Virus record (IMG/VR): IMGVR_UViG_3300035703_000009
Location: 143,111 to 207,110 of that record
Origin: a virus
DNA length: 64,000 bases
Reading direction: 5' to 3' (one strand)
Each line of letters starts with the position of its first letter. Position 1 is the stretch's first letter. Under the pieces are notes generated by a model. That model did no database searches, was not told where the DNA came from, and worked only from the letters and a program-made list of their open reading frames with translations. The translations under genes and the position numbers were made by a program. This document shows positions 4,613 through 50,525 of the stretch, one piece after another.

Positions 4613-4649
4613 TAGTGTTGGTTATTTTTAAAGGTACAAATAGTCCCAG

Positions 4650-5087
4650 TGGACCCGTCGGGAATCGAACCCGAGTCTTGCTCAGCAAATCCAGAGGACT
4701 CATTCACAGGCTTAGTCAGTTTTACGACTCTGACAACCGTTTTGGTTTTCTGGGTAGTTTTTATGGTGAGTTTCCTTCTCACCCTCATGACGGCTTTCTA
4801 CATACCTACACGTCTATCCGTAGTGTCTTTGTCAACGATTTCGCCCCCTATATGTCGTTGATCTGGAACGCCCGTGGTCAGCCACAGCTATTAAGGGAGC
4901 CCTTCCAAGCTTGCACATTTGCTTTCGAAGGGTAAGTGCGACCCATTGCTTACGCGGCTATCGCCATTTCAGCACCAACAAAAGAGTTGCCGTTTAAATG
5001 ATTCGATAGGGGATTAAAGAGCTTCCATCTAGCTCTGCCTGCATCATCTCAAAGAACCTAGCTGCCAATCAATTCCTGGTCGAGCCC
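4650..5087 (-). ncRNA. ssrA: Phage transfer-messenger RNA (tmRNA)
   Basis: On the minus strand the 3' part has a T arm (TCGGG TTCGATT CCCGA) and the acceptor strand CGGGTCC; the 5' end GGGCTCG at 5081-5087 pairs with it over 7 bp (two G-U pairs). The 5' block GGAATTGATTGGC matches the GGATTCGACGGG region of known tmRNAs, and AAAACTGACTAAGC near the 3' end matches the conserved block before the T arm. The tag reading frame at 4950-4991 gives GNSFVGAEMAIAA and a stop. CCA is not encoded. The product would rescue stalled ribosomes and tag peptides for proteolysis. About 438 nt, somewhat longer than typical. Confidence 0.88.
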
Positions 5088-24073: not shown

Positions 24074-25921
24074 ATGCATAGTTTTTCTGAATATTTACAT
24101 CACACTTCTCCTGAACCTCAAATCACTAAGCTATTTGAAACAGCAGGTCCAGTCTTTTCATCTCGCTTGACTCTAGAAAACTTTGACTTTGAGGTCAATG
24201 CAATCAACGAGTTCGAGAATCTACTTCCCAATTCATTTGACTTGCACTTAGACATGATCCTTACTGGAGGGTCTACTCTAGTCTCTCAATACTACCATGA
24301 TCTCGCTAGTGGCAAAGAAAAAATGTTTGAAAAGATTAGAGAATCGGTTAATTCTTCTGACTTTGAAAAGATTAACGAGTCTCTTAAAAGCCTACACACC
24401 GTGCTTAAGGAAAAATACTCTCATCTCATTGAGCAGGCAGCGATTGACTTTGACAGTAAGTTTGGAGACATAACCAATGATGCAGTAATCGATGCTGCAC
24501 TAAAGGGAGCCCCAGAAACCACTGCAGATAAGAGCAAAGTCATATCAATGCTTAAGGACCTATGGAATGGTCTAACTGATGATGGCGATTGGTTATCAGT
24601 CTCTCAACTTTTGCTGGACATAGTTGGAATCTTTGATCCATTTGGGGTCGCAGATGGTATCAACGCGATGATTTACTTTAAGAGAGGAAGGTGGTTGCTT
24701 GGAGCAATATCAGTAGTCTCTGCTCTTATTCCATACGGCGGTGATGCTCTTAAATTACTAAAGCTTGGCAAGACTGGCAAGTATGCCGAAGAAGTCGTGA
24801 TGTACACAATCAAAGGCGGTCGTGGAGCTGCTCAAAAGGCACTACAAAGAATTCCAGTAAAAGACCGAGGAGCAGTGATGAAAGCGTTATCATATATCGC
24901 TCGCGTCCTTCCATCGGCTATGTCAAAAGCCAGTGCAGCAATCTCTTCGTTTTTTGGCAAGTACTTAGCAAGGTATACTAAATGGATTCCAGGAATGGAA
25001 AACTTTTTTAATGGAATCGCAAAAAGATTTTCTGGCTATGCTAAGAAAATGGACGATCTCGTAAAAGACCTCAAGTACGCTCAAGGAACCCTAATTAAAG
25101 CGGCTGATGCTACTGCTGACCTTGCCAAGGCAGCTAAACGTGGTGCTAAGATGGAAATAGACTCAGCTAGCGGGCTAATTCGTCTCTATAACGCTGAAGG
25201 CAAAGTGATCAGAGAATTTTCAGAAGAATTCCTAAAGAAGTCTAAGTTTTGGAGCACACTCGGCAAAAATCCTATTGTGAGAAACGTGTCTACTGCTGAG
25301 GACCTAGTTAAGTATTATAATGGAATCGCAAAGGTTACTCCATCCCTGTTTTCGTCAGTTGCCAAGATATTTTCAGTTATTCATAAAGGAGCAGTTGGCA
25401 GTTCTAAATTTACGATATTTGTCGGAAAACAGATAATTAAGATGGCAACTGGTCAAACTGCTGAAGAACTTGGAATCCCAGACGAACAGTCAGAGTTTTA
25501 CGGTGCTGACTTTTTAAACAATGCAGTACAAAAAAAGATAGATGAAGAAAGAAAAAAAGGCGTAAACTATCCAGCAGTAGTGACCTTTGACTCAGCAAAC
25601 GACGAAGACTATCAAACTATCACTAAGTATCAAAACGATTGGGCGAAAATAGTAGGCGGACCTGAAGTCATCCCAGTCATGTATGATAAATTTGGAGACG
25701 CTGAGTTAAAACAAGAATTCAATGACTTTTGGAGCAAAGTAGGAAAAGGTGAGATAAAAAGAGATGCCTCAGGCAACTTAATCAAAGGTGAGCCAGCTCC
25801 AGTAAATAAAGTCGTAAAAGAGGTTCCTAATCTACGCTCGACTGACTGGTATCGGGAAGCTTTTCCTCAGGTACCCAATGAATCACGCATACTATCATTC
25901 AGTAAATTTATCAACGACTAA
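24074..25921 (+). CDS. Probable internal virion protein with pre-toxin-TG-like segment, 615 aa
   Basis: N-terminal MHSFSEYL...ITKLFE followed by TAG fits the capsid-targeting peptide discussed under findings. Residues ~175-235 contain LLDIVGIFDPFGVADGINAM and a hydrophobic SVVSALIPYGGDALKLL, the pattern of pre-toxin TG regions and of large phage-internal proteins. The rest is helical and Lys-rich. The C terminus RILSFSKFIND resembles the same signal again. It may be carried in the capsid and injected; no toxin domain is recognised. Last base overlaps the next start. Confidence 0.65.
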   Translation: MHSFSEYLHHTSPEPQITKLFETAGPVFSSRLTLENFDFEVNAINEFENLLPNSFDLHLDMILTGGSTLVSQYYHDLASGKEKMFEKIRESVNSSDFEKINESLKSLHTVLKEKYSHLIEQAAIDFDSKFGDITNDAVIDAALKGAPETTADKSKVISMLKDLWNGLTDDGDWLSVSQLLLDIVGIFDPFGVADGINAMIYFKRGRWLLGAISVVSALIPYGGDALKLLKLGKTGKYAEEVVMYTIKGGRGAAQKALQRIPVKDRGAVMKALSYIARVLPSAMSKASAAISSFFGKYLARYTKWIPGMENFFNGIAKRFSGYAKKMDDLVKDLKYAQGTLIKAADATADLAKAAKRGAKMEIDSASGLIRLYNAEGKVIREFSEEFLKKSKFWSTLGKNPIVRNVSTAEDLVKYYNGIAKVTPSLFSSVAKIFSVIHKGAVGSSKFTIFVGKQIIKMATGQTAEELGIPDEQSEFYGADFLNNAVQKKIDEERKKGVNYPAVVTFDSANDEDYQTITKYQNDWAKIVGGPEVIPVMYDKFGDAELKQEFNDFWSKVGKGEIKRDASGNLIKGEPAPVNKVVKEVPNLRSTDWYREAFPQVPNESRILSFSKFIND

Positions 25922-32689: not shown

Positions 32690-33114
32690 GACTTGAAGTG
32701 CCAAAGGAAAAGGATCCTACATTCGGAACCATCTTTTTTCAAGCGATATCCGAAGGTCTGACCGACCTCAAGCTTGAGAACGGAAAGTGGCCTAATACGA
32801 TTCTTTTTTGCGGTCCTTTGGGCGAAGAGCTATTTGACCACCTAACCGAACTCAGTTGGGACATGACGACATTCAATCCCACTAAGGGCGGCGGCCTTGT
32901 CAATAAGATCAGGGTCGAGTACTCAAAGCCAATATCGCAGATCGAAGAGCGAGGAGGTACAGTCTTTGACGAGGCGCTCTCAACCAAGACCTTAAATGGA
33001 ATTCCCGATGCCAGGACAATGGCAAAAATACAGACAGCTTATTCAAACCTTGCATACACGATCGAGCGATCAGTTCGACCTAGCTATGAGATAAAACTAT
33101 TTCGAAAAAAATGA
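32686..33114 (+). CDS. Hypothetical protein, 142 aa
   Basis: Not recognised. Mixed alpha/beta with PNTILFCGPLGEELFDHL at residues ~36-53. Start overlaps the preceding stop and its stop overlaps the thyA start (ATGA), so it is translationally coupled to thymidylate synthase. Confidence 0.6.
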   Translation: MRLEVPKEKDPTFGTIFFQAISEGLTDLKLENGKWPNTILFCGPLGEELFDHLTELSWDMTTFNPTKGGGLVNKIRVEYSKPISQIEERGGTVFDEALSTKTLNGIPDARTMAKIQTAYSNLAYTIERSVRPSYEIKLFRKK

Positions 33115-34235
33115 ACACACTAGACAAACAATATCAAGACCTACTTGCTACTATTTTAGAACATGGCGTGACCAAGAAGGATCGCACTGGAACTGGAACT
33201 ACCTCCATTTTCGGTTACACCATTCGACACAACATGAAGCAAGGATTTCCATTACTTACCACCAAGAAAATTCACTTTAAATCAGTAGTAACTGAACTGC
33301 TTTGGTTTCTACAAGGTAGAACAGATTTGAAATGGTTGTTGGATAATGGTAATACTATTTGGGTCGGAGACGCATATAAGCATTTCACTAATGAAGTTAA
33401 TTATATTATTGATGGATATAGGAGCGGCGATATTTTAGGAACGCAACCACATATTGAAGCATTGTTTAGTAACACAAATGAACTCATACCTCTTACGAAA
33501 GAAGAATTCATCAACAAAATCAAAACAGATGATGAGTTTGCTAAGAAGTGGGGGTCACTCGGAAAGATATATGGACATCAATGGAGAAGTTGGGGCGAAA
33601 GAAGGCACGATTCAATCGATAACGAGTACGTTATTGGTATAGACCAAATCCAAAACTTAATTAACAAGTTAAAAAACAATCCTGATGATAGAAGAATGAT
33701 GGTCACCGCTTGGAACCCGTCAGAAGTTGAAAGTTGTGTTTTGCCACCTTGTCATTATGGGTTTCAAGTTTATACAAGAGAGCTAACGTGGGAAGAACAA
33801 GTTCAATGGGTTATGAAGAACACTAACGTTGAATGGGAAAATCTTTATATAGTAGAAGAAATAGCCAAACCGTCTACCCCAACTAGAGCAATCTCTTTAA
33901 TGTGGAATCAGAGAAGTGTGGATACACCACTTGGTTTACCATTCAATATAGCATCTTATGGTTTGCTATTAGAAATCATTGCTAAGATTGTGAATATGGT
34001 TCCTGATGAATTAATCGGTAATTTAGGTGATACGCACATTTATTCAAATCAAATTGATGGGTGTAAAGAACAATTAACACGAGAAGTGTTTGATCTACCT
34101 ACATTAGTTCATTCAAAAACTGATGACTTTTGGAGATCATTTGATGTTAGTCTATTTGGTCATTTAGATACTAACGATTTTAGAGTCGAAAATTACAAAT
34201 CAGGTGATACAATTCATTTCCCTCTTAGCAACTAA
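33111..34235 (+). CDS. thyA: Thymidylate synthase, 374 aa
   Basis: Converts dUMP to dTMP with methylene-tetrahydrofolate. Visible elements: DRTGTGTTSIFG, FPLLTTKKIHFKSVVTELLWFL, catalytic Cys in VLPPCHYGFQ (~215), and LGLPFNIASYG with the Asn that selects dUMP over dCMP (~280), then GDTHIYSNQID. It is about 110 residues longer than E. coli ThyA owing to insertions at ~115-145 and ~225-260. The gene is visibly more AT-rich than its neighbours, suggesting recent acquisition. Confidence 0.93.
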   Translation: MNTLDKQYQDLLATILEHGVTKKDRTGTGTTSIFGYTIRHNMKQGFPLLTTKKIHFKSVVTELLWFLQGRTDLKWLLDNGNTIWVGDAYKHFTNEVNYIIDGYRSGDILGTQPHIEALFSNTNELIPLTKEEFINKIKTDDEFAKKWGSLGKIYGHQWRSWGERRHDSIDNEYVIGIDQIQNLINKLKNNPDDRRMMVTAWNPSEVESCVLPPCHYGFQVYTRELTWEEQVQWVMKNTNVEWENLYIVEEIAKPSTPTRAISLMWNQRSVDTPLGLPFNIASYGLLLEIIAKIVNMVPDELIGNLGDTHIYSNQIDGCKEQLTREVFDLPTLVHSKTDDFWRSFDVSLFGHLDTNDFRVENYKSGDTIHFPLSN

Positions 34236-41834: not shown

Positions 41835-41906
41835 GGTCCATTGGTGTAGTGGCTAACATTCATCCCTGTCACGGATGCGCCGCGAGTTCGATTCTCGCAT
41901 GGACCG
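41835..41906 (+). tRNA. tRNA-Asp(GTC)
   Basis: Acceptor GGTCCAT/ATGGACC; anticodon loop CTGTCAC; T loop TTCGATT. CCA not encoded. Confidence 0.93.
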
Positions 41907-41933
41907 CAGAAACATTTTGTTCTTTGAAAAAAT

Positions 41934-42006
41934 GCCGAGGTAGCTCAGTTGGGAGAGCATGAGACTCATAAACTCAAGGTCAGCAGTTCGATCCTGCTTC
42001 TCGGTA
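41934..42006 (+). tRNA. tRNA-Met(CAT)
   Basis: Acceptor GCCGAGG/TCTCGGT (two G-U pairs); anticodon loop CTCATAA. Could be elongator Met or a lysidine-type Ile. Confidence 0.88.
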
Positions 42007-42019
42007 CGAAAGATAAAAT

Positions 42020-42093
42020 TGCGGGGTAGAGAAGCGGTCATCTCGGAAGTCTCATAAGCTTCAGATCGGAGGTTCGAATCCTCCCTCACGCAA
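42020..42093 (+). tRNA. tRNA-Met(CAT), second copy
   Basis: Acceptor TGCGGGG/TCACGCA with one internal mismatch; anticodon arm GAAGT CTCATAA GCTTC. Ends 5 nt before the first permuted unit. Confidence 0.8.
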
Positions 42094-42097
42094 CTAA

Positions 42098-42251
42098 GTC
42101 AGTAGCAACGTAAAAGTTACTTCGAAATCCATCATAAGGAAGGGGTCGGTGGTTCGAATCCATCTCTCGGCACTATATTAAAAACTCATGCCGAGATAGC
42201 TCAGTGGTCTAGAGCACTTTAAAGAAAAACACTTTTGCACTTTTCTCTGAC
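42098..42251 (+). ncRNA. Scaffold RNA A carrying a circularly permuted tRNA-Met(CAT)
   Basis: Outer helix GTCAG (42098-42102) / CTGAC (42247-42251); internal-loop TAGCAACG and TTTTCT; second helix AAAAGT / ACTTTT; then TACTTC. Inside, the tRNA 3' part (42129-42172: CC, loop ATCATAA, GGAAG, T arm, TCTCGGC, A) precedes the 5' part (42190-42219: GCCGAGA, D arm, GAGC, A, CTT). Joining them restores CTTCC/GGAAG and a perfect acceptor GCCGAGA/TCTCGGC, a normal 74-nt tRNA. Breakpoint: anticodon stem. Confidence 0.8.
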
Positions 42252-42291
42252 AAAATTTTAAAAGTTCGATCACGTGTAGTACTGTATCAAC

Positions 42292-42660
42292 ATGAATGCA
42301 CTAACCGACCGTCTGCTGGAACTGCCAGCCACAATCGCAGAAAATCAACGTCAGATCTTAGATTTGAGCGGTGACCTGCAACTGGTCTCAAACAACATCG
42401 TTGAGATTGAGACCAAGATAAAACTTTCTATTGCCGCAAAAGTAGATGATGCTGGCAAGAAAGTTTACTCGAATGCCGACGCAAGGGAAGCTGCCTTTGC
42501 AGAAGCTGCTGCTGACGACTTTGAGCTCATTGAGCTTAAGGACGCTCGTGACAAGAAGGAGAAGAGCCTTCAGTTGCTAAAGATCGAGTATGAAAAGCTT
42601 AGCAACGAACAGCGAAACATCCGTGCAACGTTATATTTTCTTGCCGGAAAGAGCGAATAA
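42292..42660 (+). CDS. Coiled-coil protein, 122 aa
   Basis: Mostly helical: an N-terminal coiled coil (ALTDRLLELPATIAENQRQI, residues ~3-22), a short KKVYSNADAREAAFAE segment, and a C-terminal coiled coil. This layout is common among small phage proteins of unknown role. It stands between permuted unit A and the Ro60 gene, so it may be co-transcribed with Ro60 and could be a partner. Confidence 0.7.
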   Translation: MNALTDRLLELPATIAENQRQILDLSGDLQLVSNNIVEIETKIKLSIAAKVDDAGKKVYSNADAREAAFAEAAADDFELIELKDARDKKEKSLQLLKIEYEKLSNEQRNIRATLYFLAGKSE

Positions 42661-42753
42661 AAAGTTTTCAATAAACTGAAAATGTTACGATAAACCAAGT
42701 AAGTTAATCAAACACAAGTAAGTTTAAAAAAATAAAAACCTTGTACTAAAATT

Positions 42754-49124: not shown

Positions 49125-49206
49125 GGCTTTGTGGAGAAACGGGTAGACTCGCCATCTTGAGGGGGTGGTGCTAACATGCATGAGGGTTCGAATCCCTCCA
49201 AAGTCA
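49125..49206 (+). tRNA. tRNA-Leu(GAG)
   Basis: Class II; acceptor GGCTTTG/CAAAGTC; anticodon arm CCATC TTGAGGG GGTGG. Confidence 0.85.
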
Positions 49207-49212
49207 CAATAA

Positions 49213-49284
49213 GGTCGCTTGGCCGAGAGGCGAGGCGCAGATCTGCAAAATCTGTATACACTGGTTCAAATCCAGTAGCGACCT
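49213..49284 (+). tRNA. tRNA-Cys(GCA)
   Basis: Acceptor GGTCGCT/AGCGACC; anticodon arm CAGAT CTGCAAA ATCTG; discriminator T as usual for Cys. Linear counterpart of permuted unit C. Confidence 0.92.
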
Positions 49285-49295
49285 CAAACATACAC

Positions 49296-49370
49296 ACGGG
49301 AGTAGCTCAGATGGTAGAGCAGCGGTCTCCAAAACCGAAGGTCGATCGGGTTCGAATCCCTCCTTCCGTG
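49296..49370 (+). tRNA. tRNA-Trp(CCA)
   Basis: Acceptor ACGGGAG/CTTCCGT; anticodon loop CTCCAAA; T stem only partly paired. Confidence 0.88.
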
Positions 49371-49379
49371 CATGAATAT

Positions 49380-49451
49380 GGGCACATAGCTCAGAGGTAG
49401 AGCAATCGGCTGTTAACCGATTGGTCGTAGGTTCGACTCCTGCTGTGCCCG
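49380..49451 (+). tRNA. tRNA-Asn(GTT)
   Basis: Acceptor GGGCACA/TGTGCCC; anticodon arm ATCGG CTGTTAA CCGAT; CCA encoded. Confidence 0.93.
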
Positions 49452-49463
49452 CCATATTTTAAC

Positions 49464-49534
49464 TGTCTCCTCGTCTAATGGCAGGACATCTGATTTTGGC
49501 TCAGATAATTGAGGTTCGAATCCTTGGGAGACAA
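49464..49534 (+). tRNA. tRNA-Gln(TTG)
   Basis: Acceptor TGTCTCC/GGAGACA; anticodon arm TCTGA TTTTGGC TCAGA. Confidence 0.9.
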
Positions 49535-49541
49535 CTATAAT

Positions 49542-49615
49542 GGGGAATTAGCTCAGTTGGCTAGAGCATCTGCTTTGCAAGCAGAGGGTCATCGGTTCGA
49601 GTCCGATATTCTCCA
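49542..49615 (+). tRNA. tRNA-Ala(TGC)
   Basis: Acceptor GGGGAAT/ATTCTCC; anticodon arm TCTGC TTTGCAA GCAGA. Confidence 0.93.
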
Positions 49616-49622
49616 CAAACTT

Positions 49623-49696
49623 AGGCATTTAGCTCATTTGGTTAGAGCGCCGATCTGATACGTCGGAGGTGCCCGGTTCGACTCCGGGATTGCCTA
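49623..49696 (+). tRNA. tRNA-Ile(GAT)
   Basis: Acceptor AGGCATT/ATTGCCT; anticodon arm CCGAT CTGATAC GTCGG. Confidence 0.92.
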
Positions 49697-49706
49697 CTCA
49701 ACATAA

Positions 49707-49792
49707 GGAAGGATGGCAGAGTTGGTCTATCGCGTCAGTCTTGAAAACTGAAGGTCCTCCGGGATCCGTGGGTTCGAATCCCACTCCTTCCT
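49707..49792 (+). tRNA. tRNA-Ser(TGA)
   Basis: Class II; acceptor GGAAGGA/TCCTTCC; anticodon arm TCAGT CTTGAAA ACTGA; CCA encoded. Confidence 0.93.
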
Positions 49793-49810
49793 CCATAGTA
49801 TAATAAAAGC

Positions 49811-50302
49811 ATGGAAAAGAAAATTACCGAAATGTCAGAGGAAGAGTTTAAAGCCTTCGCTGATCAGCAAAAGCAAGAGGCTAAACTCAAGCGACAAGAA
49901 GGTCATCTCAAGTTGTGGAATAACCTACCTAAGTTTGAGTCGATATGGCAGGTTCCTCAGCTGCCTCAAGTAGAGGATCCTGAGGTTTGGAAGAGCTTCT
50001 ATGTAGTGAAACTTATCGAGGCTGGAGCGATTCCCAAGAGCCTCCTAAAGGATCAGGAATACTATATAGGAGATCATCGTCGAGCTCAAGTTGCACAGTG
50101 GCGCGCTGAGAAAAATAAGTTCGTGTACATGCGCAGTAAATTTAGTCATGTCTTTGAGGATGAGTGCAACCATTTTGAAGACGACGACAGATTCTCTCTA
50201 TTCGTTCCGATTGCAATAGCAACGAGAGAGCAGTTCGAAAAGAACGATGCCACTGGAAGCGTACCCAATGATGGCAAAGGGGCGAGCTTGCTAAGCTTGT
50301 AG
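49811..50302 (+). CDS. Hypothetical protein ending inside a tRNA gene, 163 aa
   Basis: Not recognised. Charged helical N terminus (EEEFKAFADQQKQEAKLKRQ) then a domain with IWQVPQLPQVEDPEVWKSFY. The last ~16 codons lie inside tRNA-Ser(GCT) and the stop is in its variable arm, so the end was probably remodelled when the tRNA came to lie there. A TATAATAAAAGC box at 49799 precedes the ATG. Confidence 0.65.
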   Translation: MEKKITEMSEEEFKAFADQQKQEAKLKRQEGHLKLWNNLPKFESIWQVPQLPQVEDPEVWKSFYVVKLIEAGAIPKSLLKDQEYYIGDHRRAQVAQWRAEKNKFVYMRSKFSHVFEDECNHFEDDDRFSLFVPIAIATREQFEKNDATGSVPNDGKGASLLSL

Positions 50303-50346
50303 GTCGGCTAAAAACCGGCGAGTGGGGTCGGCACCCACCGCTTCCG
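50255..50346 (+). tRNA. tRNA-Ser(GCT)
   Basis: Class II; acceptor GGAAGCG/CGCTTCC; anticodon arm CGAGC TTGCTAA GCTTG; variable arm TCGGC...GCCGG-like; T stem GTGGG/CCCAC but an atypical T loop GTCGGCA. Overlaps the preceding CDS by 48 nt. Confidence 0.78.
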
Positions 50347-50351
50347 CACTA

Positions 50352-50439
50352 GGAGAATTACTCAAGTGGCCGAAGAGACCGTCTTGGAAAGGCGGCAGGT
50401 CGAGCGATCGATGCGTAGGTTCGAATCCTACATTCTCCG
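50352..50439 (+). tRNA. tRNA-Ser(GGA)
   Basis: Class II; acceptor GGAGAAT/ATTCTCC; anticodon arm CCGTC TTGGAAA GGCGG. Confidence 0.92.
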
Positions 50440-50446
50440 CACACAT

Positions 50447-50518
50447 GGAGTCTATAGTTTAATGGTAAAATAGGAGATTGTGGTTCTCTCGTTACGAGTT
50501 CGATTCTCGTTAGACTCC
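50447..50518 (+). tRNA. tRNA-His(GTG)
   Basis: Acceptor GAGTCTA/TAGACTC with the extra G(-1):C73 pair of tRNA-His; anticodon loop TTGTGGT. Last tRNA of the array. Confidence 0.92.
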
Positions 50519-50525
50519 CACTTAT

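What the first reader, a model, noticed from the sequence alone, without database searches (positions are those of the whole stretch)
41835..50518. A near-complete tRNA set, all 20 amino acids, with an initiator-type tRNA
I count 34 linear tRNA or tRNA-like genes covering every amino acid, including Leu x4, Ser x3 and an fMet-type tRNA with C1-A72. Some CCA ends are encoded and others are not, pointing to mixed origins. Together with tmRNA and bS21 this suggests strong translational independence.
Basis: seen in the sequence. Interest (0 to 1): 0.7.

Follow-up and report, generated by a model that had tools for sequence, protein, structure and literature searches.

The report
Phage tRNA array hiding Ro60-Y RNAs
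A large phage does carry tRNAs for all 20 amino acids, but mixed in with them it has a gene for the RNA-surveillance protein Ro60 and several small RNAs that copy the tRNA shape in differently rearranged forms, one of which ordinary software counts as a tRNA.

Summary
The tRNA array is real: ARAGORN genes and Rfam 34 tRNAs at 41835-50519. Two of the 35 are not decoding tRNAs, yet all 20 amino acids remain covered. The initiator tRNA is 45085-45159.

The larger result is inside the array. Gene 42754-44487 encodes Ro60 (TROVE + vWA; Foldseek top 13 all Ro60/Rsr). Around it lie five RNAs on one Ro60-type frame: lower stem, conserved internal loop, upper stem, then UUACUUC. They are the only matches to the 5' frame motif in the 207-kb record. 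Similar elements occur in 25 of 27 viral Ro60 loci. Four carry a tRNA fold opened at four different places, i.e. different circular permutations; one is short. The 'tRNA-Cys' at 44669 is one of them. In related phages this element has nine 'anticodons' in 11 sequences, including stop and SeC, while U33 and the anticodon stem stay conserved.

I read them as bacterial Y RNAs, new variants of a known kind. 'Translational independence' is only partly supported. Two further unclassified RNAs (45530-45741, 45747-45822) were noticed.

The parts
41835..50519 (+). tRNA array: 35 ARAGORN genes, of which I accept 33 as decoding tRNAs
45085..45159 (+). initiator-type tRNA-fMet (C1-A72, GGG/CCC anticodon stem)
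42754..44487 (+). Ro60 (Rsr-like) protein, 577 aa, TROVE + Ro60 vWA domain with DxSxS (D405, S407, S409)
   Evidence: Pfam PF05731 33.1 bits (cutoff 23), PF25045 31.7 bits (cutoff 27.7); Foldseek top 13 all Ro60/Rsr; alignment
42098..42251 (+). Y RNA 'type B': tRNA body permuted, Y frame inserted in the anticodon stem between positions 29 and 30; acceptor open, 3' end A-C then an 18-nt AU-rich linker
   Evidence: Rfam YrlA RF02553 30.7 bits, E 3.2e-5, below gathering 69
44541..44619 (+). short Y RNA without tRNA-like domain, directly 3' of Ro60
44650..44775 (+). Y RNA 'type A': unpermuted tRNA-like domain, acceptor shortened and followed by a GAAA-capped hairpin; ARAGORN calls it tRNA-Cys (44669-44743)
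44787..44921 (+). Y RNA 'type C': order T arm, acceptor (closed by 4 nt), D arm, anticodon arm; opened in the variable region
45310..45446 (+). Y RNA 'type D': order anticodon-side hairpin, T arm, acceptor (closed by 6 nt), D arm; opened between D and anticodon arms
   Evidence: (28.7 bits tRNA, just under threshold)
45530..45741 (+). conserved pseudoknotted ~210-nt RNA lying in the spacer between two tRNA-type genes (side observation)
45747..45822 (+). tRNA-like 'shell': acceptor, D and T arms with encoded CCA but no standard anticodon arm; ARAGORN 'His atg' (side observation)
46401..46901 (+). HNH endonuclease inside the array
48421..49035 (+). SegE-type GIY-YIG endonuclease inside the array

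Best explanation
The array is a decoding tRNA set with a Ro60 ribonucleoprotein system embedded in it. The phage makes its own Ro60 ring protein and at least five Y RNAs. Each Y RNA folds its two ends into a stem with a conserved internal loop and UUACUUC, the proposed Ro60-binding handle, and four display a tRNA-shaped head. The heads are opened at different points of the tRNA: at the acceptor (linear), in the variable region, between D and anticodon arms, and inside the anticodon stem. They are not decoding tRNAs: the triplet in the anticodon position drifts while loop shape and stem pairing are kept. Shown here: the protein family, the frame, its covariation, its link to Ro60 genes, and the tRNA-like heads. 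Inferred from bacterial Ro60/YrlA work: Ro60 binds the handle, and the head docks tRNA-handling partners (modifying enzymes, or a host exonuclease such as PNPase) onto the ring. My preferred function, about 40% likely, is surveillance and protection of the phage tRNA pool late in infection, with heads acting as docking sites and as decoys for enzymes that attack tRNAs.
For: Ro60 by Pfam, profile search of PDB sequences and predicted fold, mean pLDDT 80, Foldseek top 13 all Ro60/Rsr including a Thermus phage Ro60. The 5' frame pattern hits 5 places in the 207-kb record, all five elements, 0 reverse, control 0 forward and 1 reverse. The same search rule finds 70 elements in 27 viral Ro60 loci against 1 on the reverse strand and 1 in five Markov shuffles; 25 of 27 loci have one, median distance to Ro60 492 nt. 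Covariation: type A, 22 of 36 pairs with changes on both sides, shuffled mean 7.4; type B, 23 of 34, shuffled mean 13.0. Circularised heads: ARAGORN of 48 as tRNA, 0 of 2400 shuffles; 9 of 48 when left linear. Anticodon triplets: 9 kinds in 11 type A, 6 kinds in 9 type B, U33 in 20 of 20. Type B is a significant but sub-threshold match to Rfam YrlA, E 3.2e-5.
Against: No element passes a curated Y RNA model: YrlA 30.7 bits against 69 needed, and type A only 13.4 bits (E 9.6) to the Deinococcus Y RNA. No binding, expression or partner was tested. Elements were picked partly by stem pairing, so the pairing totals are not independent. 11 of 48 long heads are not called tRNA even when circularised. 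Two of 27 Ro60 loci (L017, L018, short contigs) show no element, and two contigs with the motif (L069, L071) show no Ro60 in the stretch held. RNAfold alone does not favour all five: z-scores -0.99 to -3.14. No PNPase or RtcB link was shown; RtcB is absent from the record.
Confidence: 0.8

Rival explanations
1. Permuted tRNA genes: the elements are tRNA genes in scrambled order, cut out and joined to give working tRNAs, as in some algae and archaea (recalled); the frame would be a splicing structure.
For: Type B heads restore a perfect 5-bp anticodon stem across the insertion in 9 of 9 sequences, with compensatory changes, keep a 7-bp acceptor, start the 3' end with A-C in 9 of 9 and ACCA in 3 of 9, and have AU-rich linkers of 17-22 nt suited to end trimming.
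Against: Anticodon triplets drift between relatives and do not fit the tRNA body. 17 of 26 permuted heads have the acceptor closed by 2-10 nt (I set aside one more row, L016_11780, as a misparsed type A). The same frame carries short heads without any tRNA. No RtcB, and the PF09414 matches in the record are below the cut-off; the one in the window is a DNA ligase.
Confidence: 0.07
2. Decoys only: the tRNA-shaped heads exist chiefly to occupy anticodon nucleases or other tRNA-attacking defences, Ro60 merely stabilising them.
For: Conserved U33 loop and stem with freely varying triplets fits a bait that must look like many anticodon loops; this idea is raised for YrlA as a competitive inhibitor of an anticodon nuclease in PMC7790460 (passages read).
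Against: Only two head types carry an anticodon-like loop of standard form; short Y RNAs have none. Ro60 is kept at 34-79% identity in all 27 loci, more than a stabiliser needs. No nuclease was tested.
Confidence: 0.3
3. Ordinary tRNA array with a few degenerate tRNA pseudogenes near an unrelated Ro60 gene.
For: ARAGORN and Rfam accept one of the elements as a plain tRNA.
Against: Frame conservation, covariation and clustering beside Ro60 across 25 of 27 loci.
Confidence: 0.03

Closest known systems
Bacterial Y RNA YrlA (Rfam RF02553; Salmonella, PDB 6CU1)
   Same: Stem from both ends plus a tRNA-like domain that is a circular permutation of tRNA (passages read: PMC8394870, PMC11472068), encoded beside rsr. 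Type B matches RF02553 end to end at E 3.2e-5.
   Different: Below the family's gathering score; a complete anticodon arm in types A-C; several Y RNAs per phage with different opening points; the description I read gives one form with D, T and acceptor arms.
Phage Ro60/Rsr proteins (Thermus phage phiLo 9l5y; 'Ro-like RNA binding protein' of Streptomyces and Gordonia phages; TROVE proteins of crAss-like phages)
   Same: Same protein family; 81 INPHARED records have a relative.
   Different: All under 60% identity; best is an uncultured 635-kb phage at 32%.
Bacteroidota Rsr loci (Saprospiraceae MAGs)
   Same: Same UUACUUC frame beside Ro60, some heads permuted (L036, L041, L051).
   Different: Fewer elements found per locus; Ro60 about 30-34% identical.
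Huge-phage tRNA arrays
   Same: Near-complete tRNA sets in large phages are known (PMC7824862 passages, give up to mean 22 per genome in a subgroup).
   Different: 33 decoding tRNAs for all 20 amino acids here.

Membership tests
Ro60/Rsr protein | TROVE domain over curated cut-off | tested here: met
   33.1 bits, cut-off 23
Ro60/Rsr protein | C-terminal Ro60 vWA domain with DxSxS | tested here: met
   31.7 bits, cut-off 27.7; D405, S407, S409 invariant in 14 sequences
Ro60/Rsr protein | Ro60 fold | tested here: met
   Foldseek E 5e-14 to 6e-10 to 13 Ro60/Rsr chains, TM about 0.5-0.6, large rmsd
Ro60/Rsr protein | binds Y RNA | not testable with these tools
   needs biochemistry
Bacterial Y RNA | encoded beside Ro60 | tested here: met
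   5 elements within 2 kb here; 25 of 27 loci
Bacterial Y RNA | stem formed by 5' and 3' ends with an internal loop | tested here: met
   covariation
Bacterial Y RNA | tRNA-like domain in at least one member | tested here: met
   37 of 48 heads, 0 of 2400 shuffles
Rfam YrlA RF02553 | score at or above gathering (69 bits) | tested here: not met
   30.7 bits for type B; no match listed for the 44640-44930 stretch with types A and C
Bacterial Y RNA | substrate of tRNA-modifying enzymes; tethers PNPase | not testable with these tools
   needs biochemistry
Permuted tRNA gene | stable identity of the anticodon | tested here: not met
   6 triplets in 9 type B sequences
Permuted tRNA gene | joined mature tRNA | not testable with these tools
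   needs tRNA sequencing
Complete decoding tRNA set | all 20 amino acids | tested here: met
   after removing 44669 and 45747
Complete decoding tRNA set | all 61 sense codons by strict wobble | tested here: not met
   55 of 61

The most novel reading that the evidence does not exclude
The phage runs a second, non-decoding tRNA layer. Ro60 holds a family of tRNA mimics that sample several circular permutations of the tRNA fold, and the type B members are matured by RNase P and 3' trimming at their open acceptor into two-piece, CCA-ended, possibly charged tRNAs clipped to Ro60 through the anticodon stem. Together with the pseudoknotted spacer RNA and the anticodon-less shell RNA this would be a dedicated system to keep translation going when host tRNAs are destroyed.
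Probability: 0.2. Interest if true: 0.85.

Novelty: new variant of a known kind. Interest (0 to 1): 0.66.

Why it matters
It shows that phages with large tRNA arrays can carry a Ro60 RNP system with several Y RNAs, and that one handle can present the tRNA fold opened at four different points, which makes the question 'what does the tRNA head of a Y RNA do' testable by comparing natural permutations. It also has a practical side: tRNA finders miscall these RNAs. In the window and 27 related loci 25 of 540 ARAGORN calls fall inside Y frames, including 5 of the 6 stop-, SeC- or Pyl-type calls listed for those loci; in one deposited phage, csAssE-Sib, two annotated tRNAs lie inside Y frames. Claims of phage suppressor or SeC tRNAs should be checked against this frame.

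Tried and rejected
Rejected: that the frame is a group I intron or small ribozyme (no Rfam match). Rejected: that the RNA ligase matches support tRNA splicing; the window one is a DNA ligase and the other (record position 24461) was not examined further. Tried without result: strict two-sided DNA patterns for Y RNAs in viral contigs gave 3 + 3 stretches only, four of them on contigs already held or overlapping them. Nearest linear tRNAs to nine of the Y heads gave no clear donor, 47-57 identical positions of 66-83. No conserved neighbour gene was found beside 56 distinct shell RNAs; the largest family reached 5 of 56. The 210-nt RNA has no blastn match in 50,697 phage records and no Rfam match besides tRNA-related ones and chance-level rows in L105. 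Paper searches showed no paper on several permutations of Y RNA heads in one genome, but the key papers (Chen 2014, Sim and Wolin 2018, Sim 2020) are not held, so this is weak; what I know of them is recalled or from citing passages.

Rows dropped before counts: 30 of 105 candidate frames scored under 15; 33 of 121 seed hits of the 210-nt RNA lacked a recognised 3' end and 9 more were over 225 nt, then redundancy was removed to 47, to which the window was added for the 48-row alignment; L016_11780 was set aside as misparsed and L004_1990 ('noT') counted by hand from the alignment as open.

Full report
1. The observation. ARAGORN gives 35 tRNA genes at 41835-50519, all on the + strand; Rfam gives 34 tRNAs over threshold and a tmRNA at 4647-5087. 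All 20 amino acids, four Leu and three Ser tRNAs, and an initiator type at 45085-45159 are there. Seven of the 35 end in encoded CCA (ends printed). The finding is therefore confirmed, with two corrections: 44669-44743 and 45747-45822 are not decoding tRNAs (below). Amino-acid coverage is unchanged.

2. How complete the set is. On 53 non-overlapping ORFs of at least 120 codons in the window, strict wobble reads 55 of 61 sense codons; the rest are 64 per 1000 codons. One of the CAU tRNAs (47537) looks to me like tRNA-Ile2, from memory of the E. coli sequence only. The record (207,110 bases, an IMG/VR virus record) shows no match to the CCA-adding enzyme, SmpB or RtcB families while the same searches find them in 10, 10 and 9 of 14 control genomes. 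So the set is near-complete but not self-sufficient, with the caution that the record may be a fragment.

3. Ro60. Gene 42754-44487 passes Pfam cut-offs for TROVE and the Ro60 vWA domain. A profile of 14 viral sequences finds five PDB sequences, all Ro60, Rsr or TROVE proteins. The AlphaFold2 model (mean pLDDT 80.4, pTM 0.64) has as its 13 matches with E below 0.001 only Ro60/Rsr chains, among them the Ro60 of Thermus phage phiLo.

4. The frame. Reading the sequence around Ro60 showed segments with tRNA arms in the wrong order, each bracketed by the same pair of sequences. A rule made from these (TRGYRA-type box, 8-nt stem, TTACTT, partner stem, pyrimidine-rich tail, lower stem) finds 75 elements: 5 in the window and 70 in 27 viral Ro60 loci. 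The same rule gives 1 on the reverse strands and 1 in five first-order Markov shuffles of those loci. In the whole record the simple 5' pattern has five hits, exactly these five elements. 25 of 27 loci have at least one; 36 of 70 elements lie within 500 nt of Ro60. Among 60 distinct frames the upper stem pairs in 447 of 480 positions, against a mean of 316 and maximum of 348 when strands are re-dealt; selection on pairing inflates this, so the reverse-strand and shuffle controls matter more. The frame also occurs next to Ro60 in Bacteroidota MAGs, crAss-like phages and an actinophage.

5. The heads. In the window there are four tRNA-like heads and one short one. Type A (44650-44775) is a linear tRNA with a shortened acceptor followed by a GAAA hairpin. 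Type B (42098-42251) has the frame inserted between positions 29 and 30 of the anticodon stem. Type C (44787-44921) runs T arm, acceptor, D arm, anticodon arm. Type D (45310-45446) runs anticodon-side hairpin, T arm, acceptor, D arm. These are four opening points of one fold. Joined end to start, 37 of 48 long heads are called tRNA by ARAGORN, 0 of 2400 shuffles; only 9 of 48 as they stand. Covariation on hand-drawn structures is strong: type A 93.9% of cells paired against 82.7% shuffled, type B 97.7% against 75.2%. The alignments were not fitted to the structures, but the structures were drawn from the window sequence.

6. Not decoding. The orthologous type A element just 3' of Ro60 reads GCA, TAA, TTA, TCA, ATC, TTT, TTC, TAG or GAT in 11 sequences, with the anticodon stem paired in all 11 (4 of 5 pairs with compensatory change) and U33 in all 11; type B reads six triplets in nine sequences, U33 in all nine. 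This explains ARAGORN's tRNA-Cys here and tRNA-Stop and tRNA-SeC in relatives. 25 of 540 ARAGORN calls in the window and the 27 loci lie inside frames; this is a lower bound, since L013:11027-11160, a type A element with ATACTTC instead of TTACTTC, escaped the rule.

7. Open and closed acceptors. Of 26 permuted heads parsed by script, 9 have acceptor linkers of 16 nt or more and 17 of 2-10 nt, none between. The nine type B elements of the alignment all continue the acceptor with A-C, three with ACCA, like the phage's own tRNA genes. A Bacteroidota element has a 100-nt linker (L041). This suggests, but does not show, that type B acceptors are trimmed to real tRNA ends.

8. Mechanism. By analogy with passages on YrlA and the RYPER complex (PMC8394870; PMC8058203; PMC7790460), Ro60 should bind the frame, and the head should recruit tRNA enzymes or a nuclease. 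For a phage that brings 33 tRNAs, I favour tRNA surveillance with decoy action; this step is inference. Four TATAAATA boxes lie in or just before the array (7 in the window, 2.1 expected), which I recall as the T4 late promoter, so late expression is likely but untested.

9. Novelty. Phage and bacterial Y RNAs near Ro60 and their tRNA mimicry are known (recalled abstract of Chen 2014; cited in PMC12282133 and PMC7765460, passages). That the known YrlA domain is a circular permutation is in PMC11472068 (passages). What I did not find in the searches listed under Tried and rejected is several permutations on one frame in one genome, the anticodon drift with conserved U33, or the suppressor/SeC miscalls. 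Type B scores 30.7 bits with RF02553 against a gathering score of 69, so I file the set as a new variant.

10. Side findings. A ~210-nt RNA at 45530-45741 has relatives in at least 123 loci by nhmmer (129 hits, 120 full-length; many were collected by its own 17-nt seed). 307 tRNAs within 400 nt are all on its strand, none opposite. In 35 of 88 seed hits with both ends it starts exactly 2 nt after a tRNA, in 48 of 88 it ends 4-8 nt before one. A structure with a pseudoknot shows 17 of 36 pairs with compensatory change, shuffled mean 11.1, and 115 cells against 28.6. It may be freed from the transcript by tRNA processing at both ends (inference). Next to it, 45747-45822 is a tRNA-like with Leu-type acceptor, D and T arms but no standard anticodon arm. 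A scan for the strict Leu-type shell gave 93 occurrences with 56 distinct inserts in 44 groups, where most rows print twice, only the two L206 rows pass an anticodon-arm test that 70 of 71 Leu/Ser tRNAs pass. Note that the control used the known anticodon to accept and a wider offset range, so it is generous. The window member is a variant of this shell, not a strict match. Neither RNA was identified.

Noticed in passing
45530-45741 (+); relatives in L016, L018-L021 and L080-L199: Conserved, pseudoknotted ~210-nt RNA that fits exactly into the spacer between two tRNA genes; no Rfam match in the stretches scanned and no blastn match of one relative in 50,697 phage records.
   Followed up: partly
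45747-45822 (+); L082, L177, L186, L198, L200-L291: tRNA-like 'shell' RNAs: constant Leu-type acceptor, D and T arms around a hypervariable insert in place of the anticodon arm; 93 strict occurrences, 56 distinct inserts, mostly solitary in diverse viral contigs with no shared neighbour gene.
   Followed up: partly
41649, 45867, 47307, 48391 (+): TATAAATA boxes in or just before the array, like T4 late promoters (recalled); 7 in the window, 2.1 expected.
   Followed up: no
4647-5087 (-): tmRNA (51.8 bits) in a record with no SmpB match.
   Followed up: no
L063 4633-4705 and 4778-4851: Phage csAssE-Sib (OR575929.1): annotated tRNA-Tyr and tRNA-Lys lie inside Y RNA frames beside its Ro60 gene.
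   Followed up: partly
42019-42092 (+): Second initiator-like CAT tRNA with a poor acceptor stem, 72% identical to the fMet gene; similar copies in relatives.
   Followed up: no
33111-34235 (+): Thymidylate synthase of 374 aa spanning a 266-position Pfam profile, so about 100 aa are inserted.
   Followed up: no
L041 1405-1614: Bacteroidota Y RNA-like element with a 100-nt linker between the two acceptor strands.
   Followed up: no
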